Translations under genes and position numbers: made by a program
DNA from: Ignavibacteriales bacterium
GTDB taxonomy: Bacteria; Bacteroidota; Ignavibacteria; UBA10030
Length of the DNA stretch: 64,000 nt
NCBI GenBank assembly: GCA_026390575.1
Contig: JAPLFR010000007.1
Location: forward strand, 1 to 64,000
Direction: 5' to 3'
Notes under the pieces: model-generated
The model's database searches: none
Told to the model about the DNA's origin: nothing
The model's input: only the letters and a program-made list of their open reading frames with translations
Part shown: one piece after another, positions 3,868 through 22,837 of the stretch
Numbering within the stretch: position 1 is the stretch's first letter
Layout: each line of letters starts with the position of its first letter

Positions 3868-3907
3868 GATAACCTCTTGTGGTGATAGATTAAAATGTTT
3901 ATTAGCC

Positions 3908-4065: not shown

Positions 4066-4073
4066 GGCTACAG

Positions 4074-4805
4074 TTACTTTATGAATAACATAGCCTTAGA
4101 AAGAGATATACTCTGAGTCTTAAGGATATAAAAATAAATTCCACTACAACAACCATGTGCATTCCAGATGAGGGAATGAGGTCCCATTGGTAATTCTTTG
4201 TCGATCAATTTGTTGATAACTCGTCCATGCACGTCGCAAACGATCATGGAAACATGAGTTCGCGCTGGTAAATAAAATGAAATTTGAGTGGATGGATTAA
4301 ATGGATTGGGATAATTTTGATAGAGAATATAATTTGAAGGTAGCGATATTGGATTATCGACATTTGATGGAATCTCATTAATAAGCATGATAGTCATCAA
4401 TGGTCTGTTCAACGAATTATTGTAAAATACGAGTGAATCCGATTGAGCTGCATTGTTAACGGAAAGTTTCGTGACCGGAGGCATATACTGAAAAATAAAC
4501 AACGCGGAATCAGATGGAAGTATAGTAGTCCGGGAATTTATTCTAAACTGATACCTAAGATTCCCAATCTTCTTGACGCTGTCATGAGAGCTTACAGAGA
4601 AAAGATAATTTCGATAAGAAGAACTGAATATTTGTACTGAGTCTATCGATAGTGTGCGAGTGCCGGAATTGTACACATGTATAGTATCAATAAACTTTGG
4701 ATAAAACGGATATTTCGATGGAAAATTGAGCGTGTCTTTTGATAAAGTTACGATTTGCCCAAAAGACACTGTTGTATACAGGAGGATAGCAAAAGCTGTT
4801 TTCAT
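4074..4805 (-). CDS. T9SS-sorted secreted protein (cassette C19)
   Basis: About 243 residues. Signal peptide MKTAFAILLYTTVSFGQ. The middle part has an Ig-like/DUF1573-like pattern (DTIHVYNSGTRTLSIDSVQI). The C-terminal ~80 residues are a T9SS type A sorting domain: LYQNYPNPFNPSTQISFYLP, then VHGRVINKLIDKEL, ending CSGIYFYILKTQ..AMLFIK. The protein should cross the outer membrane by T9SS and stay on the surface or be released. The ATG at 4805 places the signal peptide at the N-terminus; an in-frame GTG at 4820 is the alternative. Encoded in a mobile cassette, so its export depends on the host T9SS. Confidence 0.85.
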   Translation of the reverse strand: MKTAFAILLYTTVSFGQIVTLSKDTLNFPSKYPFYPKFIDTIHVYNSGTRTLSIDSVQIFSSSYRNYLFSVSSHDSVKKIGNLRYQFRINSRTTILPSDSALFIFQYMPPVTKLSVNNAAQSDSLVFYNNSLNRPLMTIMLINEIPSNVDNPISLPSNYILYQNYPNPFNPSTQISFYLPARTHVSMIVCDVHGRVINKLIDKELPMGPHSLIWNAHGCCSGIYFYILKTQSISLSKAMLFIK

Positions 4806-4835
4806 TTTATTCACATCCACAAAATTAATGTAGCC

Positions 4836-4993
4836 GCCTAACGGACAGGCGCTAAGCTGCGGCGTTGATAAGTATCAACATGCACCCAAGGAAGTGAGTT
4901 CATACTGAAAGAGAAATTATTAAGACTAAAATCTATACTCGCCATGCGTAACGTACCCAGCTGGCAACCGTCAGCTTGAGCGCCTGGTTAGGC
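4836..4993 (-). other. attC site of cassette C18
   Basis: 158 bp, GCCTAAC (4836-4842) to GTTAGGC (4987-4993), arms GGCGCT/AGCGCC. Short type. Confidence 0.95.
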
Positions 4994-4996
4994 CGC

Positions 4997-5296
4997 TTAC
5001 TTTAATTTCAATTTGGGAATGTCTTTAAGCATATGTAAAATGGAATCTGGTAATATATGCTGCAATGAATCATTCCAAAATAATGTTTTCTGGTTTGGTA
5101 TCGATTTGCCGCCGACCATTGGCATATGATCTCGATTTCCCTTTTCAATGGGAGTTATTTGTATAAAGTAATACTGCCCATTGAATGGAACTTTAGTAAT
5201 AATATTCAATGATGAAGTGTCTTTCTGTTTTTCCTCACCAGTACATAAAGAAATGCTATTAATAAGTGTTACAAGAACAAAAGCGATATACTTCAT
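4997..5296 (-). CDS. Small exported protein (cassette C18)
   Basis: 99 residues with an N-terminal hydrophobic signal (MKYIAFVLVTLINSISLC). The Cys at 18 could be a lipidation site, although SLC is a poor lipobox. The remainder is polar and Lys-rich at the end (KDIPKLKLK). AAGGAT lies about 8 nt before the ATG at 5296. No family recognised. Only 3 bp separate the stop from the attC core, so the cassette is tightly packed. Confidence 0.7.
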   Translation of the reverse strand: MKYIAFVLVTLINSISLCTGEEKQKDTSSLNIITKVPFNGQYYFIQITPIEKGNRDHMPMVGGKSIPNQKTLFWNDSLQHILPDSILHMLKDIPKLKLK

Positions 5297-5318
5297 AATT
5301 TATCCTTTCAGTAAGCGG

Positions 5319-5476
5319 CCTAACGGACTGCGCATAAGCTGCGGCGTTGATAAGTTTCGTGATGCAACCAACGAAATGAGTTCATGCTGTATTTTTTTTT
5401 GTTGTTGCACCCGACCGTTACTCGCCATGTTTAACGTACTCAGCTGGCAACCGTCAGCTTGATGCGCTGGTTAGGC
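5319..5476 (-). other. attC site of cassette C17
   Basis: 158 bp, GCCTAAC (5319-5325) to GTTAGGC (5470-5476), GCGCAT/ATGCGC arms. Nearly identical to the attC at 16807-16961, apart from a T-rich stretch in the loop. Confidence 0.94.
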
Positions 5477-5619
5477 CGAAATTATAATTGGTGAACCTTA
5501 CCTGAATTAAAATACAAATCTTTGCAAAGACTTTATCAACTTTAATTTTTCTGACACGGGCAACTTTTTGATGACCGCGATACTTCCCTCAACCACAAAA
5601 AACACACACCGCACGTGCG
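5477..5619 (-). other. Gene-less cassette C17 body
   Basis: 143 bp without a convincing gene. It is almost identical to the body of cassette C4 (16962-17132), which has about 28 extra bases in the middle. Read on the minus strand it starts with GCACGTGCGGTG and ends with a short frame encoding PVSEKLKLIKSLQRFVF then stop, shared with C4 and similar to the tail of C5. It could be a decayed gene, a tiny peptide, or a regulatory or RNA cassette. Confidence 0.75.
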
Positions 5620-5850
5620 GCCTAACGGAACGCGGCTAAGCTGCCGCGTGACCTGCCTGCGTGCCGTAGGCACTACGGCAGGCAGGCCAATTTAAATTAA
5701 CCACAAAACGAAACGAGTTTACGCTAATAACCAAATTTAATTTACTCACCCAACGAGGTACTGAAAAGTTAATTAAATAAACGTCAACCCACCATTCGCA
5801 ATGTAAATTGCTCCCACGCTCATTCGGTCAGCTTGAGCCGCTGGTTAGGC
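5620..5850 (-). other. attC site of cassette C16, with hairpin insertion
   Basis: 231 bp, GCCTAAC (5620-5626) to GTTAGGC (5844-5850), arms GCGGCT/AGCCGC. It is a long-type site with about 35 extra bases at 5652-5686 that form an inverted repeat (CCTGCCTG .. CAGGCAGG). Confidence 0.92.
5652..5686. repeat. Palindromic insertion in attC
   Basis: Inverted repeat CCTGCCTG..CCGTAG / CTACGGCAGGCAGG with a 3-nt loop and a 4-nt bulge, lying between GTGACC and AATTT of an otherwise normal long attC. Its ends match the perfect palindrome at 23810-23829, so it probably belongs to the same short palindromic repeat family. Confidence 0.75.
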
Positions 5851-5866
5851 GGTGCTGGTCGATGAA

Positions 5867-6853
5867 TCACAGAGCAACGATCCAAGATTTCCAACTTTCG
5901 ACGCTGAATCCATAATCTTTATTAGCAAGTTGTACAAGCAAACGATGGGCAACCTGTCGCTCATTCGCACGATTTGCTTTTAGATAAGCCAACAAGAGAT
6001 TACCGCCACCTCGTAATAGCGGTATAGCAAGTTTAGGCGACACTCGGGTATTCGTAAGGATTTCTAAAGTTCCAGTGAATGCGAAGAGATTCGTTCCATC
6101 TAGCAACGAACGAAGTGAAGAAATCACTGGATACCAATCAACTGTACGCGGTGATGTTTTGGCTTGTCCTAGTAAGATACTATTTGCGATTCCTGAGACT
6201 CGACCATCAGGATCACGAAGGGCATCAGAGAGTTCCCACCAAGTTGAATCTACATCAAAAAAATTTGCAAGAACAGCAGATGCAAGAAGACGGTTTTTAT
6301 GATTCCCATCGGATCGCAATGCTCGAAAGGCAATTTGCTGGTCAGCAATGCTATTATATTGTTCAATAGTATTCCAAACTTCTCGAACGATAGCAGAATC
6401 GGCAAAATTACTAACCAAAGAATAAATCGTGTCTACCGATCGTGAGGGATAGAATTGCAAAGCCATGAAGAAATCGTTTTGGTGAGAATTGAATAACTCA
6501 AATGCCTTTGACCACTTTTGAATGAGTGCTAAAGTATCTCGAAAAGGTTCTTTGTATTTAACAAGAGATGAATAACTGGGTTCAACAACAGTGATGATAG
6601 TATAAGGTTTGCCACCATCAAAGAATACACAAACACTAGCGTCAGGAAAACCTAGCTTGAATCGAAGATCAGCTGCACATGCTCCGAATGGCTTATCGGG
6701 TTCAAGTGCTGAGAGAGTGTCGAGTAGCTTCTGAGGAGACCAAGAACTTAATCCGATGAATTCAACTTGACCCTTTGACGTTTGCAATACTTGGGAATAT
6801 GAAATGCTAATCGTGAAGCAAGCAATTGCGAGAACAAGTTTTAATGATTGCAC
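5867..6853 (-). CDS. Exported HEAT-like protein (cassette C16)
   Basis: 328 residues. Signal peptide MQSLKLVLAIACFTISISYS. The C-terminal half is helical with HEAT-like repeats (NRLLASAVLANFF, DALRDPDGRVSGIANSILLG, PLLRGGGNLLLAYLKAN). The N-terminal part (about 20-110) is a mixed fold with two Cys. The first codon is GTG at 6853, backed by AAGGAG about 9 nt upstream, so GTG rather than a later ATG is the likely start. Probably periplasmic or secreted; function unknown. Confidence 0.78.
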   Translation of the reverse strand: MQSLKLVLAIACFTISISYSQVLQTSKGQVEFIGLSSWSPQKLLDTLSALEPDKPFGACAADLRFKLGFPDASVCVFFDGGKPYTIITVVEPSYSSLVKYKEPFRDTLALIQKWSKAFELFNSHQNDFFMALQFYPSRSVDTIYSLVSNFADSAIVREVWNTIEQYNSIADQQIAFRALRSDGNHKNRLLASAVLANFFDVDSTWWELSDALRDPDGRVSGIANSILLGQAKTSPRTVDWYPVISSLRSLLDGTNLFAFTGTLEILTNTRVSPKLAIPLLRGGGNLLLAYLKANRANERQVAHRLLVQLANKDYGFSVESWKSWIVAL

Positions 6854-6880
6854 TTTATTACTCTCCTTTCCACCAGCACC

Positions 6881-7076
6881 GCCTAACGGACCGGCGCTAA
6901 GCTGCGGCGCTGATAATTTTCAAATTGTTGAAAACGAAACGAGTTCATGCTGATAACCAAATTAAATGTTCCCAACCAACGAGGTACTGAAAAGTTAATT
7001 ATAAAAACTTAAACCCACCATTCGCCATGCTTAACGTACCCGGCTGGCAACCGTCGGCTTGAGCGCCTGGTTAGGC
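6881..7076 (-). other. attC site of cassette C15
   Basis: 196 bp, GCCTAAC (6881-6887) to GTTAGGC (7070-7076), GGCGCT/AGCGCC arms. Long type with AACGAGGTACTGAAAAGTTA in the loop. It supplies the stop codon of the C15 gene. Confidence 0.94.
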
Positions 7077-7691
7077 GGGCGTTGATTTATATTGCTCTCC
7101 GAGAGCGATCAACTGACTTTGGATATGAAAAACGATCTCTTCCATCTTCAACTCATCAATGAATATATTGTTATTGTATTTAAACCACTTAAGTACCTCG
7201 CATTTGTCAATATCTTGTAATGCAATACCATTGTGATGAACAATTGAACGACGCAAAATTCTTAGGTCACCCATTACAGTGACAAGTAATGCTTCTTTTT
7301 TTAATCCAAGAGAATTCGCAATTTCAGATCTGTAGTAGTCCTCCCAGTATTGATATATGCTAACAATACACATATTGCCAATAAACTTATAATTGTTCCC
7401 TCCTTTATCATTACGCTGCTTGTATTCACCTTGAGTGCATCGATGCAAAATCACCGAACCGGGGAGATTAGGATTGCCTTTTCCGTACATGAAATCAATA
7501 GAATCAAGGTGCTCAATTGTCATTAATTCGGGAGAATCTTTAAAGAGCGATAGAGATTTTTGTTGACCCTCGATAAATTCTTTCCTAACAGTATAAAATC
7601 CTCTGATCGAATCGAGATAAACACCGTAAATAGAATGAACAACGTCAAGAAATTGTTCGATCGAAGCATTTATATTTTCAAATGTTTCCAT
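7071..7691 (-). CDS. Possible HEPN-fold protein (cassette C15)
   Basis: About 206 residues, soluble and helical. The segment GDLRILRRSIVHHNGIALQD (near residue 150) fits the R-x4-6-H signature of HEPN-type nucleases and their relatives, and flanking helices are consistent, but the assignment rests on this motif alone. The ATG at 7691 is preferred; an upstream in-frame ATG at 7763 lies inside the neighbouring attC. The stop codon TAA is part of the attC core (GCC TAA C). No Shine-Dalgarno is visible. If HEPN, an RNase or RNA-binding role in defence or toxin-antitoxin biology is possible. Confidence 0.72.
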   Translation of the reverse strand: METFENINASIEQFLDVVHSIYGVYLDSIRGFYTVRKEFIEGQQKSLSLFKDSPELMTIEHLDSIDFMYGKGNPNLPGSVILHRCTQGEYKQRNDKGGNNYKFIGNMCIVSIYQYWEDYYRSEIANSLGLKKEALLVTVMGDLRILRRSIVHHNGIALQDIDKCEVLKWFKYNNNIFIDELKMEEIVFHIQSQLIALGEQYKSTPA

Positions 7692-7709
7692 ATATGATAA
7701 ATCTAGCCC

Positions 7710-7943
7710 GCCTAACGGACTGCAACTAAGCTGCAGCGTGACCAATTTTCTATTTGCACCCACCGAAACAAGTTCATGCTATAAACCAAATTAATACGTA
7801 TCAAAGTTATAGGTACTAAGAACTGAATAATAAAAATGATAACCCACCACCAGCCATGCTTAACGTACTAGCCCGCCGACAATTGCTTTTTAGAAATGCC
7901 GGCGGGCGACGCTCATCTCGTCAGCTTGAGTTGCTGGTTATGC
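7710..7943 (-). other. attC site of cassette C14, with hairpin insertion
   Basis: 234 bp, GCCTAAC (7710-7716) to GTTATGC (7937-7943). Arms GCAACT/AGTTGC are a unique, fully compensated pair. Long type plus a 37-bp palindromic insertion at 7871-7907. Confidence 0.92.
7871..7907. repeat. 37-bp palindromic insertion in attC
   Basis: GCCCGCCG (7871-7878) and CGGCGGGC (7900-7907) flank ACAATTGCTTTTTAG. The same 37-bp element sits in the attC at 9547-9740 (9668-9704) at the same relative place. Confidence 0.85.
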
Positions 7944-8188
7944 CAAACAACTTTCAATGTACTTCCAGTGGTCGAAACACAGAGACCGATATTCTCAATA
8001 TGCACTCAACGCAATAGATTGTTGCGCGTGCGGTGCGCTTTTTAATAACTGCACCCCACTTTCCAAGAACGATGCCATTTTTGAAAACGTAACTCTACTT
8101 TTTATATCCACCTCGATGAGCGGAAGTGAACCCTCAAAGTATTTTGGAACTTGCCCTGAAAAACAATTTTATGCGCACCGTGCGCGCG
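7944..8188 (-). pseudogene. Cassette C14 body: IR-bounded module, no intact gene
   Basis: Contains a 164-bp module (8024-8187) bounded by GCGCGTGCGGTGCGC (8024-8038) and GCGCACCGTGCGCGC (8173-8187). It aligns without gaps to a 164-bp module in C5 (16642-16805). C5 has an open frame through the module, but the matching frame here is broken by stops. A plus-strand frame of 83 codons runs into the next attC and is not convincing. Either a decayed relative of the C5 gene or a non-coding element whose ends matter more than its coding capacity. Confidence 0.55.
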
Positions 8189-8347
8189 GCATAACGGACT
8201 GCGGCTAAGCTGCCGCGTGACCAACTTTCAAAATACACAAAACGAAACAAGTTCATGCTGAATACTTTATTATTAAGAACCAGAACCTCTGCTCGCCATG
8301 CTTAACGTACCCACGCTCATCCGGTCAGCTTGAGCCGATGGTTAGGT
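8189..8347 (-). other. attC site of cassette C13
   Basis: 159 bp, GCATAAC (8189-8195) to GTTAGGT (8341-8347), arms CGGCT/AGCCG. The GGT variant matches ACCTAAC at the far end of its cassette (9547-9553). Confidence 0.93.
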
Positions 8348-8360
8348 GGCGTTTGCATGG

Positions 8361-9497
8361 TTATTCATCATAGTCGGCAGATTTTAAAAATCTAGAAAAT
8401 TGACGCAAATGTTCGCCAAGCTGTTTGTCGACTTCAACAGAGGTTCCTTCCCGACGGATAAGCCCAGACTTAGAAAATTTCTTTACTAGTTCAACGCGTT
8501 CCTCTTGAACATACACACGACGATATGCGTCTTCGTTACTAACTGAAACAGCGCTAGGTGAATGAACAATCATATTTCTTAAATTAGATCTATCTGGTTG
8601 ATCAAGGGCAGATCGAAGTTGAGACTTATTAGAAATCATTTTTATCAAAGAACGGATGGGTTCTATACCATCAACAAGAAAAGAATCAAGAAAGATGGAG
8701 TCCGTATCGACAATAGAAGACTTATAAATATCCTTATATTTTTCGACCAAAGAAACCCTCTTTCGTTTTTTTCGCCTGTCGGCAGCATCCGAAAATGGTA
8801 AAACAATACCAAACGCGACAAACAAAATGAGAATTATTAAAGCTATTGGATAAGCGAGAATGCGGACAAGTTGCATTAATAGACCACCCCTAAATGAATC
8901 AGTCCAGAAATTAGACTCAGTCTTTTCTTGGAAGGATTTTGTGATTTGGATGTTATCCATACCAGCAATCTTACCCATAGGTAGAAGAGACGGAGATTTT
9001 GAAGCATCGTGAATAATTAGGAGCTTGAGAGAAATAAACTTATCTCTTTCGAGAATAACTTTTTCAAAAAATACTGAGTCAGGTGCGTGAATGGTTGGCT
9101 TTAAATCAGTACGGAGGTAGTCAGAATTTGATTCGAGTGGATTTGCCTCAATAATACGTCCATCGGTTATTCGGAATCCCCATGGTTTTGTTTGATCAAA
9201 CATCGGTTGTGTTATATCTACTTGGCCGACGTTTGAAACCTTTATAGTAAAGATGCGAAGATTAAGTCCCTTTTGACTAATATTATCCCCGTCAAATAAA
9301 ATCGAAAGTTTCCCGAGTTGTTCTCTGACCTCAAGAACATTTGCTTCACTGACTATGTCAAATTGAATGGCGGGCTTTTTCTCATAGACCAATGCGATGT
9401 ATACCGCGACAATAATAGAAACCACGCCAACAATTGAACCTACAAATGACCAGGCAAATTTTCTGTCTAGCTGTGCAAATTCTTTCCAAAACGACAT
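8361..9497 (-). CDS. Two-pass membrane protein of unknown function (cassette C13)
   Basis: 378 residues. TM1 at about 16-37 (FVGSIVGVVSIIVAVYIALV), a ~170-residue region that should be extracytoplasmic, TM2 at about 210-235 (LVRILAYPIALIILILFVAF), a basic stretch RRKKRKR, then a cytoplasmic helical C-terminus. Layout suggests a sensor or signalling-like protein, but no domain is recognised. Strong Shine-Dalgarno AGGAGG before the ATG at 9497 supports the start and suggests efficient translation once transcribed. One of the larger cassette genes. Confidence 0.78.
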   Translation of the reverse strand: MSFWKEFAQLDRKFAWSFVGSIVGVVSIIVAVYIALVYEKKPAIQFDIVSEANVLEVREQLGKLSILFDGDNISQKGLNLRIFTIKVSNVGQVDITQPMFDQTKPWGFRITDGRIIEANPLESNSDYLRTDLKPTIHAPDSVFFEKVILERDKFISLKLLIIHDASKSPSLLPMGKIAGMDNIQITKSFQEKTESNFWTDSFRGGLLMQLVRILAYPIALIILILFVAFGIVLPFSDAADRRKKRKRVSLVEKYKDIYKSSIVDTDSIFLDSFLVDGIEPIRSLIKMISNKSQLRSALDQPDRSNLRNMIVHSPSAVSVSNEDAYRRVYVQEERVELVKKFSKSGLIRREGTSVEVDKQLGEHLRQFSRFLKSADYDE

Positions 9498-9546
9498 AGT
9501 TAGCCTCCTTTGATTAATTTCTTATATCGATGCTCTTTCAAACGCC

Positions 9547-9740
9547 ACCTAACGGACTGGCGCTAAGCTGCGGCGTTGATAAGTTTCAAGTTGCTGAAAA
9601 CGAAATGAGTTCACACTGATAGCCTTCAATATGTACTAAACCGTTACGAGCCATGCTTAACGTACAAGCCCGCCGACAATTGCTTTTTAGTAAAGCCGGC
9701 GGGCGACGCTCATTCCGTCGGCTTGAGCGCCTGGTTAGGC
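9547..9740 (-). other. attC site of cassette C12, with hairpin insertion
   Basis: 194 bp, ACCTAAC (9547-9553) to GTTAGGC (9734-9740), GGCGCT/AGCGCC arms. Short type plus the 37-bp palindromic element at 9668-9704. Confidence 0.93.
9668..9704. repeat. 37-bp palindromic insertion in attC
   Basis: GCCCGCCG (9668-9675) pairs with CGGCGGGC (9697-9704). Differs only at a few loop bases from the copy at 7871-7907. Confidence 0.85.
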
Positions 9741-9745
9741 AACCG

Positions 9746-10537
9746 CTATTTTTCAGTATTTAATAATTTGTATTTACTAAGTTTATACTTAAAAATTGGG
9801 AATAATTCTCCAAAAATAGAAACCACATTTTTTCTTGCTGATGTTTCAAATGTAAGGAGCAAAGGTTTTATTTTTGTGAGTTGACCCTTCCACAGCAAAG
9901 ATAATATTCTAGGATGGATAACAGGATGGTCATGTTCCTGAAGGAAAGTATAAGAATTAAGTTCTATATAACGTTCTTCATCAACTAGGTCTACAAAACC
10001 TGATTCTTCTCCTCTATGGAGAAAGCGATGACGCCGAGAAATATGTGGATCTAATGTTTTCCTCAATTGTCGGAGTGACTTGACCAAGTCCGAACCTGCT
10101 ATCCATTTATGTTGCGTAATTATCTCGAATGTACAAAACCGTGGCGACAAACCAAGTTCGTATACTTCAGCTGAAAGCATGAGCATGCAATCAAGAATAC
10201 TTGCCATCGAGGTTGTGTAAACAAAGAAATGATAATCTGTCCAGTCTCTGCGCCCATTAGAATTATCTTTTGTTAAAAAACCTTTGGGTGAACGATTAAT
10301 TAGATATTGTGAATAACGAATTCTATCGAAAACCTTTATTAGGTTTGATGCATTATTAAAAACGTCAGTAACATACAGTTCACCTTGGTTTAATCGAGAG
10401 CGATTTGTTCTGCGCCATTCCTTATATTTTTCTTCATCCTCCGGAATACCTGATGCACCTGCCTTAGTGATTGGATGAAATATATCAAGTAATAATTTAA
10501 AAAAAGGTTGAGCAACTATTTCAGTTGATTTATCCAT
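9746..10537 (-). CDS. Possible Cthe_2314-like HEPN protein (cassette C12)
   Basis: 263 residues, soluble and helical. RRHRFLHRGEE (near residue 170) is an R-x4-H motif preceded by a long helix (LVKSLRQLRKTLDPHI), as in HEPN-fold families. It also has DWTDYHFFVYTTSMASILDCMLML as a core helix. Resemblance to the Cthe_2314-like HEPN group is from recall only. ATG at 10537, no clear Shine-Dalgarno. Single gene of its cassette; no adjacent MNT partner, so a toxin-antitoxin pair is not evident. Confidence 0.72.
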   Translation of the reverse strand: MDKSTEIVAQPFFKLLLDIFHPITKAGASGIPEDEEKYKEWRRTNRSRLNQGELYVTDVFNNASNLIKVFDRIRYSQYLINRSPKGFLTKDNSNGRRDWTDYHFFVYTTSMASILDCMLMLSAEVYELGLSPRFCTFEIITQHKWIAGSDLVKSLRQLRKTLDPHISRRHRFLHRGEESGFVDLVDEERYIELNSYTFLQEHDHPVIHPRILSLLWKGQLTKIKPLLLTFETSARKNVVSIFGELFPIFKYKLSKYKLLNTEK

Positions 10538-10550
10538 GTTTTTAGCGGTT

Positions 10551-10747
10551 GCCTAACGGACTGCGGCTAAGCTGACCGCGTGACCAATTTTAATGTTACA
10601 CAAAACGAAATGAGTTCATGCTGATAACAAAATTAAATTTACTCAACCAATGAGGTACTAAAAAGCTACTTATGAAAACTTAAATCCACCATTAGCCATG
10701 TAAATTGTTCCCACGCTCATCCGGTCAGCTTGAGCCGCTGGTTAGGC
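10551..10747 (-). other. attC site of cassette C11
   Basis: 197 bp, GCCTAAC (10551-10557) to GTTAGGC (10741-10747), arms GCGGCT/AGCCGC. Long type. Confidence 0.94.
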
Positions 10748-10812
10748 GGCGCATAGTGTATTGTTTTTGACAAATATTACGATCTACACAATTACAAACA
10801 AATGGTTAAGCA

Positions 10813-11127
10813 CTATTTGTGCAATAAATGATACGTGAGTTCAAGAATCGCAACCTCAAGCAGGAAAATAAATATTGATATAGGCCAACCGTGAACTTCT
10901 GCCGTGAGATAACAGAATATGCCAAATCCAAAAATGAATACTGGATATGCGTAACCATCTACACGAGTACGTATCTCTTTTTGGAGACTAAAGTTTCTTT
11001 TTGATTTCTCATTCAACTGGCGGTTACAATCATCGCAAATGTAACTTGTGAAAACCATTTCTCGATTACAGACATCACACTGTAACTTACCTTTTACTTG
11101 AACTGGAATTTCAGTTTGCGAAGCCAT
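10813..11127 (-). CDS. Zinc-ribbon membrane protein (cassette C11)
   Basis: 104 residues. N-terminal zinc ribbon CDVCNREMVFTSYICDDCNR (two CxxC pairs, about residues 17-36) in the cytoplasm, then a basic linker and two membrane helices (about 60-78 and 82-100). No enzyme motif. ATG at 11127 without clear ribosome binding site. About 65 bp of AT-rich sequence separates the stop from its attC. Function unknown. Confidence 0.72.
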   Translation of the reverse strand: MASQTEIPVQVKGKLQCDVCNREMVFTSYICDDCNRQLNEKSKRNFSLQKEIRTRVDGYAYPVFIFGFGIFCYLTAEVHGWPISIFIFLLEVAILELTYHLLHK

Positions 11128-11174
11128 CTGATTTCGTCCAATCGTGTGAATACGATCCTTGTATTATTTGCGCC

Positions 11175-11332
11175 GCCTAACGGACTGGCGCTAAGCTGCG
11201 GCGCTGAAAAGTTTCAACATGCACCCAGCGAAGTGAGTTCATGCTGAAAAAGAAATTATTAAGAACGAAACCTATGCACGCCATGATTAACGTACCCAGC
11301 TGGCAACCGTCAGCTTGAGCGCCTGGTTAGGG
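11175..11332 (-). other. attC site of cassette C10
   Basis: 158 bp, GCCTAAC (11175-11181) to GTTAGGG (11326-11332), GGCGCT/AGCGCC arms. Short type. Confidence 0.95.
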
Positions 11333-11389
11333 CGCAAGCACCAACGACTCTTGAATTAAAAGTTTTGTGCCAGAAAAGAGAAAAATATT

Positions 11390-11668
11390 ATGAGACGAAT
11401 AGATTATCATGTTGCAATGAAAGATGATATTACAATTAAAGAATTGGTTGGGTTACTTAAATGGATAATAAATAGTCCAATCTGGGCTTATCCTCGCACA
11501 TCCAAATTCAACCAATTACCCGAAAACATAAAACGCCATGTAGAGATAAAATATCATCAAATAGATGAGCCGAAATTGAAAAAACTGTCCGGTTCATTTT
11601 ACAATAAGGACAATGCATTGACAAGCGAAACCGACGAGAAGCAAACACATGCCAGAATTGTACCATGA
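11390..11668 (+). CDS. Possible reversed cassette gene (C10)
   Basis: 92 residues on the plus strand, opposite to all other cassette genes: MRRIDYHVAMKDDITIKELV and then PIWAYPRTSKFNQLPENIKR. Purine-rich AGAAAAGAG lies about 10 nt before the ATG. No minus-strand frame of comparable length is seen in this 538-bp cassette. A second overlapping plus-strand frame (11649-11876) ends on a stop formed by the next attC and may be a frame-shifted continuation or chance. Being antisense to the array, it would need its own promoter. No family recognised. Confidence 0.5.
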   Translation: MRRIDYHVAMKDDITIKELVGLLKWIINSPIWAYPRTSKFNQLPENIKRHVEIKYHQIDEPKLKKLSGSFYNKDNALTSETDEKQTHARIVP

Positions 11669-11870
11669 GTTACTTTTATCATACTTTACCTTTTCTATGG
11701 GCATAATATCTCAATTCCTATCAAACTCTAAGTATGACGGAACAAATTTCCAGAGAATCAATGAACCGACAATATTCAAAAACAATCCGACAACATTTAG
11801 GATGATTGAAATACAGGGTTGCATATTTTTACCCTTTCAATTAAGAGGCACAAAACTTTGTTTGCTTGCG

Positions 11871-12028
11871 CCCTAACGGACTGGCGCTAAGCTGCGGCGC
11901 TGAAAAGTTTCAACATGCACCCAGAGAAGTGAGTTCATGCTGAAAAAGAAATTATTAAGACTAAAACCTATACACGCCATGCGTAACGTACCCGGCTGGC
12001 AACCGTCAGCTTGAGCGCCTGGTTAGGG
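11871..12028 (-). other. attC site of cassette C9
   Basis: 158 bp, CCCTAAC (11871-11877) to GTTAGGG (12022-12028), GGCGCT/AGCGCC arms. Short type. Confidence 0.95.
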
Positions 12029-12093
12029 CGCACATAAATGAAATAGAAAACCATATTGCAAAGAAGGCACAATGAAACTTAAATACCTTGACT

Positions 12094-12591
12094 TTATTTG
12101 CAAATCCTTTGATCCAATCGTTTTGCATATGTTTGCAGGTCGATGGAATCAGAAGTGCCAACCATACGAATATGAACGACTATTGACTTACGAACGAATG
12201 CAAGGTCTCCATTATCGTTCAATGGAACTCCAAGAAGTTCAGGTGTTAATGCGTGAGAAATAACTTGAGCACATTGTTCACCGATTGTTTTAACCGATTC
12301 TACAGATCGTTTGTACAAATCGTCTTCTTCACTCTGGCCGAAACCAGATACAATGATTGAAAAAGATTTCTTAGCCGTATCATTGTCAGAGCAAATAAAT
12401 AACGCAATACCACCAGCAATTTCACCTTTGAAGGCAAGTTGCTGGTAAATGCTCACCTCAGGTTTTGGCAGTTCAGAAAACATTGCCGGGACTTCATCAC
12501 GGATTTGTCCACCTGCAAATCCAACTGGTAAATCGCCGGGCTGAATAAGAAGCGATTCAAGCTGATCGTAGGTAAATTGTAACTGAGGCAT
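12094..12591 (-). CDS. Conserved-looking soluble protein (cassette C9)
   Basis: 165 residues, no signal or membrane segment. Mixed alpha/beta, with strands such as GGIALFICSD and KSIVVHIRMVG. Strong AGGAGG about 8 nt before the ATG at 12591. About 65 bp separates the stop from the attC. No family recognised from sequence. A short plus-strand frame over the same bases is treated as a shadow. Confidence 0.75.
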   Translation of the reverse strand: MPQLQFTYDQLESLLIQPGDLPVGFAGGQIRDEVPAMFSELPKPEVSIYQQLAFKGEIAGGIALFICSDNDTAKKSFSIIVSGFGQSEEDDLYKRSVESVKTIGEQCAQVISHALTPELLGVPLNDNGDLAFVRKSIVVHIRMVGTSDSIDLQTYAKRLDQRICK

Positions 12592-12623
12592 TATTATTCC
12601 TCCTGTGAATTATTTTGCGTGCG

Positions 12624-12820
12624 CCCTAACGGACTGCGGCTAAGCTGCCGCGTGACCAATTTTCAAATTGCACCAAACGAAATAAGTTCATGCTGATAAC
12701 CAAATTCATCTGCACTCAACCAACGAGGCACTGAAAAGTTAATAATAAAAACGTCAACCCACCATTAGCCATGTTAATTGCTCCCACGCTCATACGGTCA
12801 GCTTGAGCCGCTGGTTAGGC
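12624..12820 (-). other. attC site of cassette C8
   Basis: 197 bp, CCCTAAC (12624-12630) to GTTAGGC (12814-12820), GCGGCT/AGCCGC arms. Long type. Supplies the stop codon of the C8 gene. Confidence 0.94.
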
Positions 12821-13258
12821 AGCCTGAACTTCTATTCCTTTTGATTTCGCTAAATCAATTATTTTCAGTTTGATTTCTCTGAGATGTTGAAATGTTAAAT
12901 TGCCAAGATAAACATTGGATGGCTCGCCGGATTTCGCATAGATTTTTAAATTGAATAGACTTACTTCGATTTTTGCGATGTTCTCCCATCTATGCAAAAT
13001 ATTCTTCGGTGTACTAATAGGTCCCTCGATACCGGTCTCATCAAACGAAAATAATTTTGGTTTATAAAACCAACGGTAACCAATTGCAAAGACAATTGCA
13101 CCGAAACCAATAAGTATACCTATATATCGAAAGCTATTATCGGACAATATTGCTTGTACAATATTTGAAATACCTATAAGTCCTAATAATGATCTCTGAA
13201 TGAATCTGTTAATAGGTTTTGCAGGTTCAGGTTGTAGATCAATACTGAATTTCTCCAT
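12815..13258 (-). CDS. Small membrane protein with PH-like C-terminus (cassette C8)
   Basis: 147 residues. Two hydrophobic segments (about 26-44 and 49-66) are followed by KLFSFDETGIEGPI .. RWENIAKIEVSLFNLKIYA, a pattern seen in bacterial PH-domain (YcxB/YdbT-like) membrane proteins. ATG at 13258 is chosen over an in-frame TTG at 13270 because GGAG lies 8 nt upstream of the ATG. The TAA stop is inside the attC core. Function unknown; family resemblance moderate. Confidence 0.72.
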   Translation of the reverse strand: MEKFSIDLQPEPAKPINRFIQRSLLGLIGISNIVQAILSDNSFRYIGILIGFGAIVFAIGYRWFYKPKLFSFDETGIEGPISTPKNILHRWENIAKIEVSLFNLKIYAKSGEPSNVYLGNLTFQHLREIKLKIIDLAKSKGIEVQAA

Positions 13259-13286
13259 TGGATTCTCCAATAATTATTTTCAGGCT

Positions 13287-13480
13287 GCCTAACGGATTGG
13301 CGCTAAGCTGCGGCGTGACCAAGCCTCAAATTGCACCAAACGAAACGAGTTTACGCTGAAAACTGAATTAATTACACAAAAAGAACTTAATACTATAAAC
13401 TTACTAATGAAACCAATACCCGTTGCTCGCAATGAATTTTGTAGCACGCTCATTCCGTCAGCTTGAGCGCCTGGTTAGGC
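13287..13480 (-). other. attC site of cassette C7
   Basis: 194 bp, GCCTAAC (13287-13293) to GTTAGGC (13474-13480), GGCGCT/AGCGCC arms. Long type. Supplies the stop codon of the C7 gene. Confidence 0.94.
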
Positions 13481-14023
13481 GGTGCGATTTCTAACTTTAA
13501 AATCTGTGAAATGATTAAAGACATCACCAATACATGTAGTCGCATAAAGGATGTAATTCACAATTCTGTTTAATTCAGAAAGTTCTGCATATTCATACTG
13601 AAACTTTAATCCAGAAGATGCTTTTGATGTTGTCTTCCTTCTGCGAACTTTTTGTGTGGTTGGTTCTAAGTCCCATTGCGAATGTATTAATTTGTTACGC
13701 AACTCTTCTGCCTTTAAACAAACGGAAATAAGTTCAGACAACGCGACTTTTGGGTCATGTTTTCCAAAATTAAATTCTGTATCTGAAAGTCTAAGTTTCA
13801 TAAGAGAAGAAAAAAGATTGATTCGATTTTTAAACGACATTTCGGCTACTATTGATTCAGCCTCGTAATCGTCAACGGTAAGTAAAGATGCGATTGCTAC
13901 AAGTAGCTGAACATCCAGAGAAGAAAAAGCTATAATAGCTCTTCCAAGTATTAGTTCATATTCATCTGGAATAAATGGCCCTGGCGATTCATTGTTTTTA
14001 TATGAATCATACTGGATAAACAT
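13475..14023 (-). CDS. Possible HEPN-fold protein (cassette C7)
   Basis: 182 residues, helical. LKAEELRNKLIHSQW (about residues 108-122) gives the RN-x3-H signature typical of HEPN-related proteins, and the helix IIAFSSLDVQLLVAIASLL fits the first long helix of such folds. Lys/Arg-rich loop QKVRRRKTTSK. AAGGAA lies about 10 nt before the ATG at 14023. The TAA stop is part of the attC core (GCC TAA C). Enzymatic activity cannot be judged from this motif alone. Confidence 0.74.
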   Translation of the reverse strand: MFIQYDSYKNNESPGPFIPDEYELILGRAIIAFSSLDVQLLVAIASLLTVDDYEAESIVAEMSFKNRINLFSSLMKLRLSDTEFNFGKHDPKVALSELISVCLKAEELRNKLIHSQWDLEPTTQKVRRRKTTSKASSGLKFQYEYAELSELNRIVNYILYATTCIGDVFNHFTDFKVRNRTA

Positions 14024-14051
14024 AATTATGATTCCTTATTTCTATCGCACC

Positions 14052-14247
14052 GCCTAACGGATGGGCGCTAAGCTGCGGCATGACCAAACCTCAACATGCA
14101 CCCAACGAAACAAGTTTACGCTGATAACTAAATTATTTGTACCCAACCAACGAGGTACTGAATAGTTAATTATGAAAACCTAAACCCACCGCACGCAATG
14201 CGTAACGTACCCACGCTTATTCCGTCAGCTTGAGAGCCTGGTTAGGG
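14052..14247 (-). other. attC site of cassette C6
   Basis: 196 bp, GCCTAAC (14052-14058) to GTTAGGG (14241-14247). Arms GGCGCT/AGAGCC contain one mismatch, the only clearly imperfect inner arm seen. Long type. Confidence 0.92.
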
Positions 14248-14256
14248 CGCAACAGA

Positions 14257-16386
14257 TTATTTTATAAGCAAAAGTTTCCTTGTTTGTACAAAACTTCCTG
14301 CTTGTATTCGATATATATACACACCACTTGCTAATTTACCCCCATTTAGAATTTTCTCATATCTTCCTAGATTCAAATCCTCGTTCACTAGCGTTGCCAA
14401 CTCTCTACCTAGTAGATCAAAGATTTTCAGTGTGACGAATTCGGAATGTGGAATTTGAAACCTTATTAGCGTGCTTGGATTGAATGGATTCGGATAATTT
14501 TGTGCAAGAAAGAACTTCGTCGGTTCCAATAATGTTTCTTCTACATCGTTTACGTTACTTACACTTTTAAAAAGGCCATGTCTCCAAGTACCGATGTACA
14601 GAGAACCTGATAATGATAAAGCCATACATTGTGTTCGAAGATCGGTCAAGCCTGAATTGATCTGAATCCATGAAATTCCACGGTCTGTCGATTTGTACAC
14701 TCCGTCGTAGCTCGTTGAGACATATAGATCACCTTTAGGATTCTCTACGATGGAAACAATTCCTTGCTGAGCCAATGTTCCCCCTAATCCGGTCCATGTT
14801 AGTCCATCGTCAGTAGATTTGTATATACCAGACGTACCTGCCAAGATTGTTCCATTCATCAGACGATACAAACACGCAACGGAGTTTGATCCTAAACTGA
14901 TCGGAGTCCAAAAATCACCATTATTGGTCGAGCGGAAAACCTGCCCATTAAAACTTCCTGCCAGTAAGGTGCCGGAAGGAGAAGAGATCATCGAAAAAAT
15001 TGTTAGACTTGTTAAACCATTATTAACAGCAACCCACGAACTACCTCTGTCAGTTGAACGAAATATGCCCCCCCAGTAATCTCCCGCAAAGATGGTACCA
15101 GATAATCCCTCCGTAATTGTAAATATTGAGGAAATGTTTAATCCCGTTGAAGATAGCTGCCATGAATTGCCTGTGTCGGTTGATTTAAAGACCTTTTCAC
15201 CCCCTGCATAGATATCTCCATTTATCGACCGGTAAAAACATCGGGTGATCGTATTAGAATTTCCAACCTCCATCTTCGTCCACGTCTGCCCACCATCGGT
15301 TGACCGATGGATATCAGTTTCTTCAGTAAAAGAAAATAGACTGCAAAATACTACATTAGCATTAACTGCGAATACTGCTTCAATATCGGCACTGTGAATA
15401 CCGGTACAACTCTTTATCCAAGTATCACCATTGTCTGTTGATCGAAAAATACCGGCATAATAATTGCCAGCGAGAATGCAGTTTTCATCAGGAATGATCA
15501 ATGCCCTCACATCTCCACTTGTGTAGGGTGGTGAAGCCACGACATCCCAAGTTGTTCCGTGATTGGTAGATCTGAACACCTCGCCCCAACCGCCATTATT
15601 AGTTCCAGTAAACAAGATACCCGTGCTAGATATTACAGATGACGACACATTTCTCATATCATAAACATAATTCGATCGCGGAGTCCATAGATCACCGTTA
15701 TTTGTGGAGACATAAACAGACGGGATTTGGGATACAAAGGCAAGCACACCCCCTATTCCGTCTTCAGCGAATGAAGTCGGCGGAAGATCACTCACTTTTT
15801 GCCAAGTCGAACCATCATCAGTTGAGCGATAAATACTGGGATTAATAGCTGTACAGTAGTCACACGCTGGAGCAATGCTTCCGAAAATAGTTCCGTTGCT
15901 CAGTTTGTATAATATTAGAGCTTTACAATAGCCAAGTTGTTGAGTTCGATTTATCCATGTATTTCCAGTGTCGTCAGATGTATAGACTCCATTATAGTAT
16001 GTTCCAACAATTATTCGACCTGTTCCTGTGACACAGAGTGATTGTACACCTAAACTCTGTAAAGGTGTTTTGTTCCAGTTGTTACCTCCATCAATCGAGC
16101 GATACAGGTTCGAGGCTCCGGCGAACAGAAAACCATTTGATGTGACTGCCAAACAGTTGATATCGTTTCCGGTAAGCCCAATCGAGTTCCATGACTGGCC
16201 TCCATTGGACGAACTATAGATACCTTGATTTGCTGTACCAGCTAGGATTCTGCCAGACGAATCCTTAGCGAATGAAAGTATGAACCCGGAATCATAAGGG
16301 CCATTGGTCTGCTGCCAGAAGTTGGTTTGCGATAAACTCATCGGTGAAAAGAATAATATAATTGAAATAATGACAAATATTTTCAT
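14257..16386 (-). CDS. T9SS-sorted Asp-box beta-propeller protein (cassette C6)
   Basis: 709 residues, the largest cassette gene here. Signal peptide MKIFVIISIILFFSPMSLS. About 13 BNR/Asp-box repeats of about 40-50 residues follow (YRSIDGGNNW, FRSTDNGDTW, HRSTDGGQTW, YKSTDDGLTW and others), the hallmark of sialidase- or photosystem stability factor-like propellers. The C-terminal ~85 residues are a T9SS sorting domain (AQNYPNPFNPSTLIRF, ending VQTRKLLLIK). Expected at the cell surface or outside. No sialidase catalytic Arg triad was identified, so an enzymatic role is not claimed; adhesion or glycan binding is possible. Confidence 0.9.
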   Translation of the reverse strand: MKIFVIISIILFFSPMSLSQTNFWQQTNGPYDSGFILSFAKDSSGRILAGTANQGIYSSSNGGQSWNSIGLTGNDINCLAVTSNGFLFAGASNLYRSIDGGNNWNKTPLQSLGVQSLCVTGTGRIIVGTYYNGVYTSDDTGNTWINRTQQLGYCKALILYKLSNGTIFGSIAPACDYCTAINPSIYRSTDDGSTWQKVSDLPPTSFAEDGIGGVLAFVSQIPSVYVSTNNGDLWTPRSNYVYDMRNVSSSVISSTGILFTGTNNGGWGEVFRSTNHGTTWDVVASPPYTSGDVRALIIPDENCILAGNYYAGIFRSTDNGDTWIKSCTGIHSADIEAVFAVNANVVFCSLFSFTEETDIHRSTDGGQTWTKMEVGNSNTITRCFYRSINGDIYAGGEKVFKSTDTGNSWQLSSTGLNISSIFTITEGLSGTIFAGDYWGGIFRSTDRGSSWVAVNNGLTSLTIFSMISSPSGTLLAGSFNGQVFRSTNNGDFWTPISLGSNSVACLYRLMNGTILAGTSGIYKSTDDGLTWTGLGGTLAQQGIVSIVENPKGDLYVSTSYDGVYKSTDRGISWIQINSGLTDLRTQCMALSLSGSLYIGTWRHGLFKSVSNVNDVEETLLEPTKFFLAQNYPNPFNPSTLIRFQIPHSEFVTLKIFDLLGRELATLVNEDLNLGRYEKILNGGKLASGVYIYRIQAGSFVQTRKLLLIK

Positions 16387-16407
16387 ATGGTTTTCTTTCG
16401 CGTTGCG

Positions 16408-16565
16408 CCCTAACGGACCGGCACTAAGCTGCGGCGTTGAAAAGTTTCGTCATGCAACCAACGAAACAAGTTCCACAACGAAAGTTTTCGCATTTGCACT
16501 CGACCGTTACTCGCCATGTTAATTGCACCCAACTGGCAACCGTCAGCTTGAGTGCCTGGTTAGGC
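16408..16565 (-). other. attC site of cassette C5
   Basis: 158 bp, CCCTAAC (16408-16414) to GTTAGGC (16559-16565). Arms GGCACT/AGTGCC, a compensated variant found only here. Confidence 0.93.
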
Positions 16566-16595
16566 TGAAATTATAATTGATGAATTGTAGTTGAA

Positions 16596-16796
16596 TCAAA
16601 ATACAAATTTTTGCAATAACTTTATCAACTCTAATTTTTCTGACACGGGCGGTGCGTTTAATCTTTGCACAAAACGTTCAAAGAACCACTGCCACTTTTG
16701 AAAACGATACTCGAAAAGTTCTATCCACGCCGATTGGTGGAACAATACTTCCAAATTATTTTTAAATACCAGCAATGAAATAAATTCATTACGCAC
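16596..16796 (-). CDS. Small ORF in IR-bounded cassette C5 (doubtful)
   Basis: 66 codons from a GTG at 16796. Aromatic-rich (HQSAWIELFEYRFQKWQWFF) and ends in PVSEKLELIKLLQKFVF, a tail also encoded, with few changes, in the otherwise gene-less cassettes C4 and C17. It lies largely within a 164-bp module whose ends are inverted repeats (16642-16656 and 16792-16805). No ribosome binding site seen. The conserved tail argues for translation at some time; the broken relative in C14 argues for a dispensable or non-coding module. Confidence 0.42.
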   Translation of the reverse strand: MRNEFISLLVFKNNLEVLFHQSAWIELFEYRFQKWQWFFERFVQRLNAPPVSEKLELIKLLQKFVF

Positions 16797-16805
16797 CGCA
16801 CGTGC
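16642..16805. repeat. 164-bp module with inverted-repeat ends (copy in C5)
   Basis: Ends GACACGGGCGGTGCG and CGCACCGCACGTGC are imperfect inverted repeats. Same length and gap-free similarity as 8024-8187 in C14. Cassettes C4 (17038-17131) and C17 (5553-5618) keep the ends but have shorter interiors. Confidence 0.65.
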
Positions 16806-16806
16806 A

Positions 16807-16961
16807 GCCTAACGGACTGCGCATAAGCTGCGGCGTTGATAAGTTTCGTGATGCAACCAACGAAATGAGTTCATGCTGGATATTTGCATTTGCACCCAGC
16901 CGTTGCTCGCCATGTTTAACGTACTCAGCTGGCAACCGTCAGCTTGATGCGCTGGTTAGGC
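16807..16961 (-). other. attC site of cassette C4
   Basis: 155 bp, GCCTAAC (16807-16813) to GTTAGGC (16955-16961), GCGCAT/ATGCGC arms. Near-duplicate of the attC at 5319-5476. Confidence 0.94.
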
Positions 16962-17132
16962 CGAAATTATAATTGGTGAACCTTACCTGAATTAAAATAC
17001 AAATCTTTGCAAAGACTTTATCAACTTTAATTTTTCTGACACGGGCATACTGCACACCACTTTTATTACAAACAAAACTTTTTGATGACCGCGATACTTC
17101 CCTCAACCACAAAAACACACACCGCACGTGCG
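16962..17132 (-). other. Gene-less cassette C4 body
   Basis: 171 bp, near-identical to cassette C17 (5477-5619) except for about 28 additional bases around 17047-17075. The only long frame runs through the attC and has no family. The short conserved frame SMPVSEKLKLIKSLQRFVF is present. A possible decayed gene, micro-peptide or non-coding cassette. Confidence 0.75.
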
Positions 17133-17291
17133 GCCTAACGGATCGGCGCTAAGCTGCGGCGCTGATAATTTTCAATATACACAAAGCGAAACAAGTTCAC
17201 GCTGAAAAGTTTATTATTAAACATCCAAACCTCTACAAGCCATGCTTATCGCACCCGGCTGGCAACCGTCAGCTTGAGCGCCTGGTTAGGC
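17133..17291 (-). other. attC site of cassette C3
   Basis: 159 bp, GCCTAAC (17133-17139) to GTTAGGC (17285-17291), GGCGCT/AGCGCC arms. Short type. Supplies the stop codon of the C3 gene. Confidence 0.95.
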
Positions 17292-17804
17292 GGGCACAAG
17301 GATAAACATATTTTCTATAATACATTTTTTATCAAGAGACTCAAAACTATGCTCACATTGACAATCGGGAGTGATATAAACAGACAACCTTAAATTGTGA
17401 GATTCAAAATATAGAGAGTACCCTATATCTTCTTCGACATATTTTGGAACTCCGTAGCAATTGACAAATTCTTGAACTGATGAACCAACACCAACGCCCT
17501 CTGCTGTTTTAAAAAAGGAATCTTGAATGTAGACAGATTTTGAACTTGAGGAGCGCGAGAAATGGTGGCCTGATATTGTAATAATCCAAAGTGTATCAAT
17601 AACTCTATCACCTTGATCTGATATTTGATCCCGAGGCAATACTTCAAGTTGATTATTCCCTATCTGACTTTTTATTTCTGCGAGAGTTCCCATGAAATTA
17701 ATGCCATCAATTTCTCGTCTGGCCAAATCAATTTGATTTCCCTGATGTATTAAATTTGAACACCCTTGAAAAATCAGAATGAAAAATAGGAATTTATTTA
17801 TCAT
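17286..17804 (-). CDS. Lipoprotein of unknown function (cassette C3)
   Basis: 172 residues. MINKFLFFILIFQGC is a short lipoprotein-like signal with Cys15. The mature part has EGVGVGSSVQEFVNCYGVP, a pattern common in small periplasmic proteins with SmpA/OmlA-like or copper-binding-like folds, and a C-terminal Cys cluster (CQCEHSF, CIIENMF). ATG at 17804, no clear Shine-Dalgarno. The TAA stop comes from the attC core. No confident family. Confidence 0.72.
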   Translation of the reverse strand: MINKFLFFILIFQGCSNLIHQGNQIDLARREIDGINFMGTLAEIKSQIGNNQLEVLPRDQISDQGDRVIDTLWIITISGHHFSRSSSSKSVYIQDSFFKTAEGVGVGSSVQEFVNCYGVPKYVEEDIGYSLYFESHNLRLSVYITPDCQCEHSFESLDKKCIIENMFILVPA

Positions 17805-17820
17805 AAGTAATTTTGTGCCC

Positions 17821-17976
17821 GCCTAACGGACCGGCGCTAAGCTGCGGCGTTGATAATTTTCAATATGCTGAAAACGAAATGAGTTCACCCTGATAGCCTT
17901 CAAAATATACAAAACCTATGCTCGCCATGCGTAACGTACCCGGCTGGCAACCGTCAGCTTGAGCGCCTGGTTAGGC
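17821..17976 (-). other. attC site of cassette C2
   Basis: 156 bp, GCCTAAC (17821-17827) to GTTAGGC (17970-17976), GGCGCT/AGCGCC arms. Short type. Confidence 0.95.
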
Positions 17977-18007
17977 CGCACCCCATATTATTTAACATAA
18001 ATAAAGT

Positions 18008-21877: not shown

Positions 21878-22837
21878 ATGCGGCAACCTAAATTACTCGA
21901 TCAAGTTCGTCAGTGCATACGCCTGAAACATCTCAGTAAACGTACCGAAGAAGCATATGTCTATTGGGCTCATCAATTTATTATCTTTCATCATAAACGA
22001 CATCCAATGACAATGGCAGAACCGGAAATTCGTCAGTTTCTTTCTCATCTTGCTATCGATAAAGAAGTCGCTCCCTCCACACAAAACCAGGCGTTCAACG
22101 CATTAATATTTTTATATGGATCAGTTCTTAAAAAAGAATTAGGAAATATCGGTGATATCGAGCGCGCTAAACGTGAGAAATACATTCCTATCGTATTCAC
22201 AAAAGAAGAAGCACGCAGCATCTTATCCAAATTGACTGGTGAATATAAACTCATCGCAGGTTTACTCTACGGATCTGGTCTCCGCTTGATGGAATGTGTC
22301 AGACTCCGTGTTCAGGATATTGATTTCGCCGCAAATCTTATCGTTGTAAAGGATGGAAAAGGAAATAAAAGCCGTGTTACCGTCCTTCCGGCGAAGTTAA
22401 AAGAATCTCTTCGCCGTCAGATTAGCAATGTTCAGTCATTGCATCAGTTTGACTTGCAACAGGGATATGGTGAAGTACTTCTGCCGAATGCCTACAAAAG
22501 AAAATCGCCGTTGAGTGCTAAAGCGTTAGGATGGCAATTTCTTTTTCCTTCAAGAAACCGATCCGGCGATCCCCGTTCCGGAATGATCATGAGACACCAT
22601 TTGGATGAAAGTGGAGTGCAGCGTTCTTTAAAAGAAGCGATAAGTAAAACAGAAATTGTCAAACAAGGAAGCCCTCATTCTTTCCGTCACTCCTTCGCTA
22701 CTCATTTACTGGAAGATGGTCATGACATCAGAACTGTTCAAGAACTTCTTGGCCATAAAGACGTGAGGACAACAATGATCTATACACATGTATTAAACAA
22801 AAAAGGTCTTACCGTCCGCAGTCCATTGGATACATAA
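21878..22837 (+). CDS. intI: Integron integrase IntI
   Basis: 319 residues, usual length for IntI. N-terminal SAM-like core-binding domain ([18 protein letters not shown]). Catalytic residues of tyrosine recombinases: R136 in [16 protein letters not shown], a Lys in the beta-hairpin near 161-164, H267-x-x-R270, H293 in [11 protein letters not shown] and nucleophile Y302. The integron-specific extra patch lies between the boxes (about 202-235, [20 protein letters not shown]), which separates IntI from XerC/D and phage integrases. ATG at 21878 is chosen because GGAGGG lies 6 nt upstream; an upstream in-frame TTG at 21845 is less likely. Divergent from the cassette array. Catalyses cassette excision and insertion between attC and attI. 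It appears intact. Confidence 0.96.

What the first reader, a model, noticed from the sequence alone, without database searches (positions are those of the whole stretch)
5553..17131. A family of modules with inverted-repeat ends inside four cassettes
C5 (16642-16805) and C14 (8024-8187) hold modules of exactly 164 bp with GCGGTGCG / CGCACCG-type ends and gap-free similarity. C4 (17038-17131, 94 bp) and C17 (5553-5618, 66 bp) keep the ends with shortened interiors. This looks like a miniature mobile or structured element specialised for cassettes. C5 has an open frame through it, while C14 has stops.
Basis: seen in the sequence. Interest (0 to 1): 0.7.

Follow-up and report, generated by a model that had tools for sequence, protein, structure and literature searches.

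The report
Integron cassettes with displaced terminal arms
Four small gene-less cassettes in a bacterial integron start with a short arm whose mirror copy (intact in two of them) lies about 80 bases before the cassette's end; related cassettes in sister species carry restriction-modification genes between the same kind of arms, so the 'module' is probably the cargo space of an unusual cassette type and not an inserted transposon.

Summary
The modules are real. C5 (16642-16805) and C14 (8024-8187) have paired 14-15-nt arms (0 of 2000 shuffles) and homologous interiors (67% identity with gaps, not gap-free). C4 and C17 keep the left arm, but their right arm no longer pairs.

The modules lie in a chromosomal integron on the minus strand. 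Each begins 1 nt after R' and ends 77-80 nt before R''. Ordinary cassettes here have ends that pair for 13-15 nt including R (Vibrio median 9; literature 9-11). The four cassettes with the least such pairing in this array are exactly the four module cassettes; in C5 and C14 the missing stem is found displaced inward, as the arms.

The same layout (R' + 1 nt + arm ... arm + 72-80 nt + R'') occurs in a fifth cassette of this genome and in three sister species. Their arms differ in sequence but still pair. Two relatives carry restriction-modification genes, two carry lipoprotein or small genes, and one sits at attI beside intI. I found no target duplication or other sign of insertion.

Best reading: arm-bordered payload compartments whose arms extend the attC hairpin of the free cassette circle. 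That function is inferred. The two-tier layout looks like a new variant of a known kind.

The parts
16559..16812 (-). C5 cassette body, from R' (TTAGGC) to R'' (GCCTAAC)
16792..16805 (-). C5 left arm GCACGTGCGGTGCG, 1 nt after R'
16643..16656 (-). C5 right arm CGCACCGCCCGTGT; 12/14 complementary to the left arm
16657..16791 (-). C5 payload, 135 nt, homologous to the C14 payload; no supported gene
16566..16642 (-). C5 class I spacer between right arm and R'', 77 nt
16409..16565 (-). attC of C5
7937..8194 (-). C14 cassette body, from R' (TTATGC) to R'' (GCATAAC)
8173..8187 (-). C14 left arm GCGCGCACGGTGCGC
8024..8038 (-). C14 right arm GCGCACCGCACGCGC; 13/15 complementary to the left arm
8039..8172 (-). 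C14 payload, homologous to the C5 payload, reading frame broken
7944..8023 (-). C14 spacer between right arm and R'', 80 nt (class II, weak similarity)
7711..7943 (-). attC of C14 (contains an inserted hairpin)
16955..17138 (-). C4 cassette body; left arm at 17118-17131, right-arm remnant GCCCGTGTC at 17038-17046, spacer 16962-17038
5470..5625 (-). C17 cassette body, near-duplicate of C4; left arm at 5605-5618, right-arm remnant at 5553-5561, spacer 5477-5553
21878..22837 (+). integron integrase (IntI)
   Evidence: TIGR02249, 442 bits; PF00589 and PF13495

Best explanation
C5, C14, C4 and C17 belong to a family of integron cassettes ('arm cassettes') whose payload compartment is bordered by two complementary 13-15-nt arms. 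One arm lies 1 nt after R', the other 72-80 nt before R''. When the integrase excises such a cassette as a circle, the two arms flank its attC, so the bottom strand can fold into the usual attC hairpin plus a second, outer stem, separated from the R stem by a one-sided 72-80-nt bulge. Ordinary cassettes of this genus do the same without the bulge: their ends pair directly for 13-15 nt. The arms are therefore most likely the displaced outer stem of the cassette's own recombination site, and the 'module' is the cargo between them: here about 135 nt or less of decayed or non-coding DNA, in relatives restriction-modification or lipoprotein genes. Shown: architecture, covariation, variable cargo, attI-proximal position of one relative. 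Inferred: that the outer stem acts in recombination of the circle. C4 and C17 are read as decayed members.
For: Cassette ends pair beyond R in ordinary cassettes (own 6.8 of 10 against 3.6 for mismatched partners, 0/20000 permutations; median 13 nt over 100 parsed cassettes of the genus; Vibrio and relatives median 9; literature 9-11, PMC2727003). The four cassettes with the least extension in the array are exactly the module cassettes. Arms of eight members covary: 92% of cells paired, 7 of 14 positions changed on both sides, 0/500 shuffles for the covariation score, slid partners 19-51% paired; 100 of 103 paired cells are Watson-Crick. Spacer length 72-80 nt in two sequence classes. Different cargo between the same ends: N6 methylase plus specificity-subunit-like protein in L080, methylase fragment plus MvaI/BcnI endonuclease in L130, lipoproteins and small ORFs in L087 and L131. 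L131 is the cassette beside intI. DNA folding of the circle junction places the arms outside the R stem in C5 and C14.
Against: No recombination data. The one-sided bulge of near-constant length has no explanation and no fold of its own. C4 and C17 have lost arm pairing yet were duplicated, so the outer stem is not essential. Class II arms are nearly identical, so only about five independent arm types support covariation. L130 lies outside an array, lacks a recognisable attC at the contig end and has non-matching R boxes. L009 has a class I right end without a matching left arm.
Confidence: 0.55

Rival explanations
1. Historical accident: an ancestral cassette whose ends paired directly lost most of its attC and was fused to another attC. 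The 72-80-nt spacer is the remnant of the first attC and the arms are an inherited relic without present function.
For: The class II right arm is followed by an R''-like GCGCAAC. Spacers of C14, L080 and L130 show weak attC similarity over model positions 100-127 (E 0.01-0.12). C4 and C17 tolerate loss of the right arm.
Against: The similarity is marginal, class I spacers show none, spacer length is kept in two sequence classes, and arms keep pairing while changing sequence, which a relic would not.
Confidence: 0.2
2. Structured RNA or promoter cassette: C5/C14 encode a non-coding RNA closed by the arms, or the cassettes act as promoters for downstream cassettes.
For: The 164-nt transcripts fold better than shuffles (z -4.5 and -3.5). 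ORF-less cassettes with promoter or antisense activity are known (PMC6557892).
Against: Without the arms the interiors fold little better than shuffles (z -2.0, -1.2, and +1.2 for L035), so the arms carry the signal. In relatives the arms are kilobases apart with genes on the opposite strand, which an RNA closing stem does not explain. No Rfam match in the window.
Confidence: 0.12
3. Miniature inverted-repeat transposable element inserted into cassettes.
For: Inverted-repeat ends; C5/C14 similarity stops at the right arm; the interior varies; cargo versions exist.
Against: Always 1 nt after R', no target duplication, arms differ between members in a compensating way, no transposase recognised in the 1.3-4.1-kb versions, no full copy of the C5 or C14 module outside cassettes in the whole genome. 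A real palindromic repeat of this genome behaves differently, with 17 scattered matches.
Confidence: 0.07
4. Common descent of one pseudogene cassette with chance inverted repeats.
For: C4, C5 and C17 are clearly related cassettes. The C5 frame has no relatives.
Against: Arms in C5, C14, L073 and L035 are each beyond 2000 shuffles and differ in sequence while pairing.
Confidence: 0.04

Closest known systems
Integron gene cassettes and their attC sites (chromosomal integrons; R''-L''-L'-R' architecture)
   Same: Bounded by R' and R'', followed by a canonical attC of this integron, in cassette arrays, one member next to attI and intI; pairing beyond the R boxes is known in general (9-11 nt, PMC2727003).
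   Different: A second complementary stem displaced 72-80 nt from R'' on one side and 1 nt from R' on the other, bordering the payload; R stem itself only 8-9 nt.
ORF-less gene cassettes (for example Treponema promoter cassettes, PMC6557892)
   Same: Short cassettes without a supported gene.
   Different: Terminal arms with covariation, and gene-bearing relatives; promoter activity untested.
Delta-attI-type unusual cassettes (PMC12901181)
   Same: Cassettes with a non-canonical arrangement at the 3' end.
   Different: Those replace attC with part of attI; here a full attC is present.
MITEs and other miniature inverted-repeat elements
   Same: Short unit with inverted-repeat ends, several copies.
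   Different: No target duplication, fixed position in cassettes, covarying arms, no genome-wide dispersal.

Membership tests
Integron gene cassette | bounded by R' and R'' with a following attC | tested here: met
   attC models hit all four
Integron gene cassette | integron integrase in cis | tested here: met
   TIGR02249, 442 bits at 21878-22837
Integron gene cassette | inserted at attI by the integrase | tested here: inconclusive
   relative L131 is the cassette adjacent to intI; insertion itself was not observed
Integron gene cassette | excision as a circle | not testable with these tools
   needs junction PCR or reads
ORF-less cassette | no supported open reading frame | tested here: met
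   no family above cut-off, no relatives, frame not conserved
ORF-less cassette | promoter or antisense activity | not testable with these tools
   needs a reporter assay or RNA-seq
MITE | terminal inverted repeats shared between copies | tested here: inconclusive
   repeats present in C5 and C14, but arm sequences differ between members with compensation
MITE | target-site duplication | tested here: not met
   flanks inspected; at most 1 nt, by eye
MITE | dispersed at unrelated sites | tested here: not met
   whole-genome searches give full copies only in cassettes
Structured non-coding RNA | conserved structure within the payload | tested here: inconclusive
   payload z -2.0, -1.2, +1.2; only two homologous payloads with intact arms, so covariation could not be tested

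The most novel reading that the evidence does not exclude
Arm cassettes are a distinct two-tier recombination substrate: an outer, cassette-specific DNA stem with a fixed 72-80-nt one-sided bulge stabilises the folded attC of the free circle, and the arms mark off a payload compartment that can be exchanged (restriction-modification genes, lipoproteins, non-coding DNA) while the ends are kept, as a frame within the cassette.
Probability: 0.25. Interest if true: 0.7.

Novelty: new variant of a known kind. Interest (0 to 1): 0.45.

Why it matters
How integron cassettes acquire their ends and their gene is an open question. A cassette family with recognisable, covarying arms and changing cargo gives a natural series (decayed, small, gene-bearing, attI-proximal) in which payload turnover can be followed. 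If the arms act in recombination, the functional site of a cassette circle extends well beyond R''-R', which cassette finders that model only R''-R' would miss.

Tried and rejected
Transposon/MITE: no target duplication, fixed position, covarying arms. Coding gene: the C5 frame has no relatives, and C5/C14 indels break the frame. Spacer as a second hairpin: the C5 circle fold suggested it, but the pieces fold no better than shuffles, z -0.5 to +1.5. Spacer as decayed attC: only marginal scores; kept as a rival. Spacer as a copied promoter: its best matches elsewhere were inside a glycosyltransferase gene and two short intergenic stretches in G004 and G001, not a consistent promoter. Occurrence in viral contigs: class II none; class I one chance match in an apparently coding region without attC. 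Other genera: the C14 module was found in no other genome of the 98 searched in the order; class II ends matched strongly only in G001 and G004, with a 14-nt inner stem shared with genus g9. Payload exchange between class I and class II backbones (C5 against C14): attractive, but spacer homology between the classes is not excluded (z 2.3, 9/300), so not claimed.

Full report
SETTING. The window holds a chromosomal integron. An integron integrase (TIGR02249, 442 bits) lies at 21878-22837 on the plus strand, and 24 attC sites lie on the minus strand between 114 and 20043. The array runs up to the contig start, and further attC runs occur on contigs C1, C15, C16 and C8 of the same genome and in all five other genomes of the genus. 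One cassette encodes a protein with a T9SS sorting domain, so the host is probably of the Bacteroidota group (inference).

OBSERVATION. The four modules exist as described in position and size. C5 and C14 have arms of 14 and 15 nt with two mismatches each; no dinucleotide shuffle out of 2000 gave an equal internal complement. Their interiors are homologous (score 86 against 21.8 +/- 3.7 in shuffles), but not without gaps: 113/168 identical with 8 gap columns, against 37-48% on the best ungapped diagonals. C4 and C17 are two copies of one cassette; their left arm is intact, their right arm no longer pairs.

THE RULE THAT THE MODULES BREAK. In each ordinary cassette of the array the sequence just after R' is complementary to the sequence just before R'' of the same cassette. 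This pairing is private to each cassette (own 6.8 against 3.6 of 10 for mismatched partners, 0/20000 permutations). Over 100 parsed cassettes of the genus the median pairing is 13 nt including R, often 15. The same measure on 201 cassettes of Vibrio and relatives gives a median of 9, in line with the published 9-11 nt (PMC2727003). So pairing beyond the R boxes is known, and the greater length is a variation. The four cassettes with the least extension in this array (R plus 1-2 nt) are exactly C4, C5, C14 and C17. In C5 and C14 the missing stem is the arms, with the right arm displaced inward by 77-80 nt.

A FAMILY. The same layout (R', 1 nt, arm, payload, arm, 72-80 nt, R'') was found in L073 in another array of this genome, in L035 of G002, in L080 of G004, and in L087, L130 and L131 of G001. 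These were found by similarity of their ends or by their short R stem, not by looking for paired arms. Over the eight members with intact arms, 92% of cells pair, 7 of 14 positions change on both sides, no shuffle reaches the covariation score, and sliding the partner by 1-3 columns drops pairing to 19-51%. Because the four class II members have nearly the same arms, about five independent arm types support this. Two spacer classes exist: class I (CAGAAAAATTAAAG..., in C5, C4, C17, L073, L035) and class II (AACAAGTAATGAGCGG..., in L080, L087, L130, L131 and, more weakly, C14). Spacer length is the same in both.

CARGO. Between class II arms lie different genes. L080 has an N6 DNA methylase (PF02384) and a protein with a weak, below-cut-off match to a restriction specificity subunit, both on the strand opposite to the cassette. 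L130 has an N6_N4 methylase fragment and a MvaI/BcnI endonuclease (PF15515, 5e-37). L087 and L131 have lipoprotein-like and small ORFs, read by eye. L131 is the first cassette beside an integron integrase 60% identical to the one here. So the unit that moves is most likely the cassette, and the region between the arms is its variable content.

MECHANISM (inferred). In the circle excised by IntI the two arms flank attC. Folding the bottom strand of that junction with DNA parameters gives the R stem, the attC hairpin and the arms as a second, outer stem in C5 and C14. In the integrated array the arms of one cassette are separated by its payload, so the outer stem around attC can form only in the circle, the substrate for insertion at attI. 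Almost all paired cells are Watson-Crick (100 of 103), and kilobase cargo can lie between the arms on either strand, which favours a DNA role over an RNA role. The spacer has no fold of its own. An outer stem of conserved sequence (GTGCCGCAAAACGC / GCGTTTTGCGGCAC), separated from the R stem by an internal loop, also flanks attC in three complete cassettes of genus g9 of the same family, and this 14-mer recurs as an inner stem in class II cassettes. Outer stems beyond R' and R'' are therefore not confined to this array.

LIMITS. No recombination data exist here. The near-constant spacer length is unexplained. C4 and C17 were duplicated although their arms no longer pair. A purely historical origin (fusion of a decayed attC with a new one) is not excluded. 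The C5/C14 payload was found only in this genome, so its own function, if any, is open; it is probably decayed. The novelty statement rests on a limited search of open-access literature.

Noticed in passing
window 5650-5690, inside the attC at 5620-5850: A palindromic repeat (CTGCCTGC...GCAGGCAG type) sits inside this attC and has 17 matches scattered over the genome: a REP-like palindrome that entered an attC.
   Followed up: yes
window 7869-7907 and 9666-9704, inside two attC sites: A GCCCGCCGGC...GTCGGCGGGC hairpin inserted in the attC; five matches in the genome, of which those on C9, C1 and C8 also overlap attC model hits.
   Followed up: partly
L134, L135, L217, L218 (genus g9, genomes G025 and G028): attC sites flanked by a conserved outer inverted repeat GTGCCGCAAAACGC / GCGTTTTGCGGCAC beyond the R boxes, seen in three complete cassettes: a two-tier attC in another genus of the family.
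   Followed up: partly
window 114-20043, and arrays of the genus: Cassette ends pair for 13-15 nt including R, longer than in Vibrio (median 9), and the complementarity is specific to each cassette.
   Followed up: yes
L130 1830-4700 (G001:C141): An arm cassette with a restriction-modification cargo that lies outside a recognisable array, with no attC before the contig end; it may be a cassette inserted at a secondary (attG-like) site.
   Followed up: no
L075 (G000:C8:64500-84400): Many attC-model matches covering only model positions about 20-138, with different outer boxes: possibly a second or decayed attC type.
   Followed up: no
L009 161-1600 (G004:C34): A relic: a partial attC, a 410-aa ORF, then a class I right end without a matching left arm.
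   Followed up: partly
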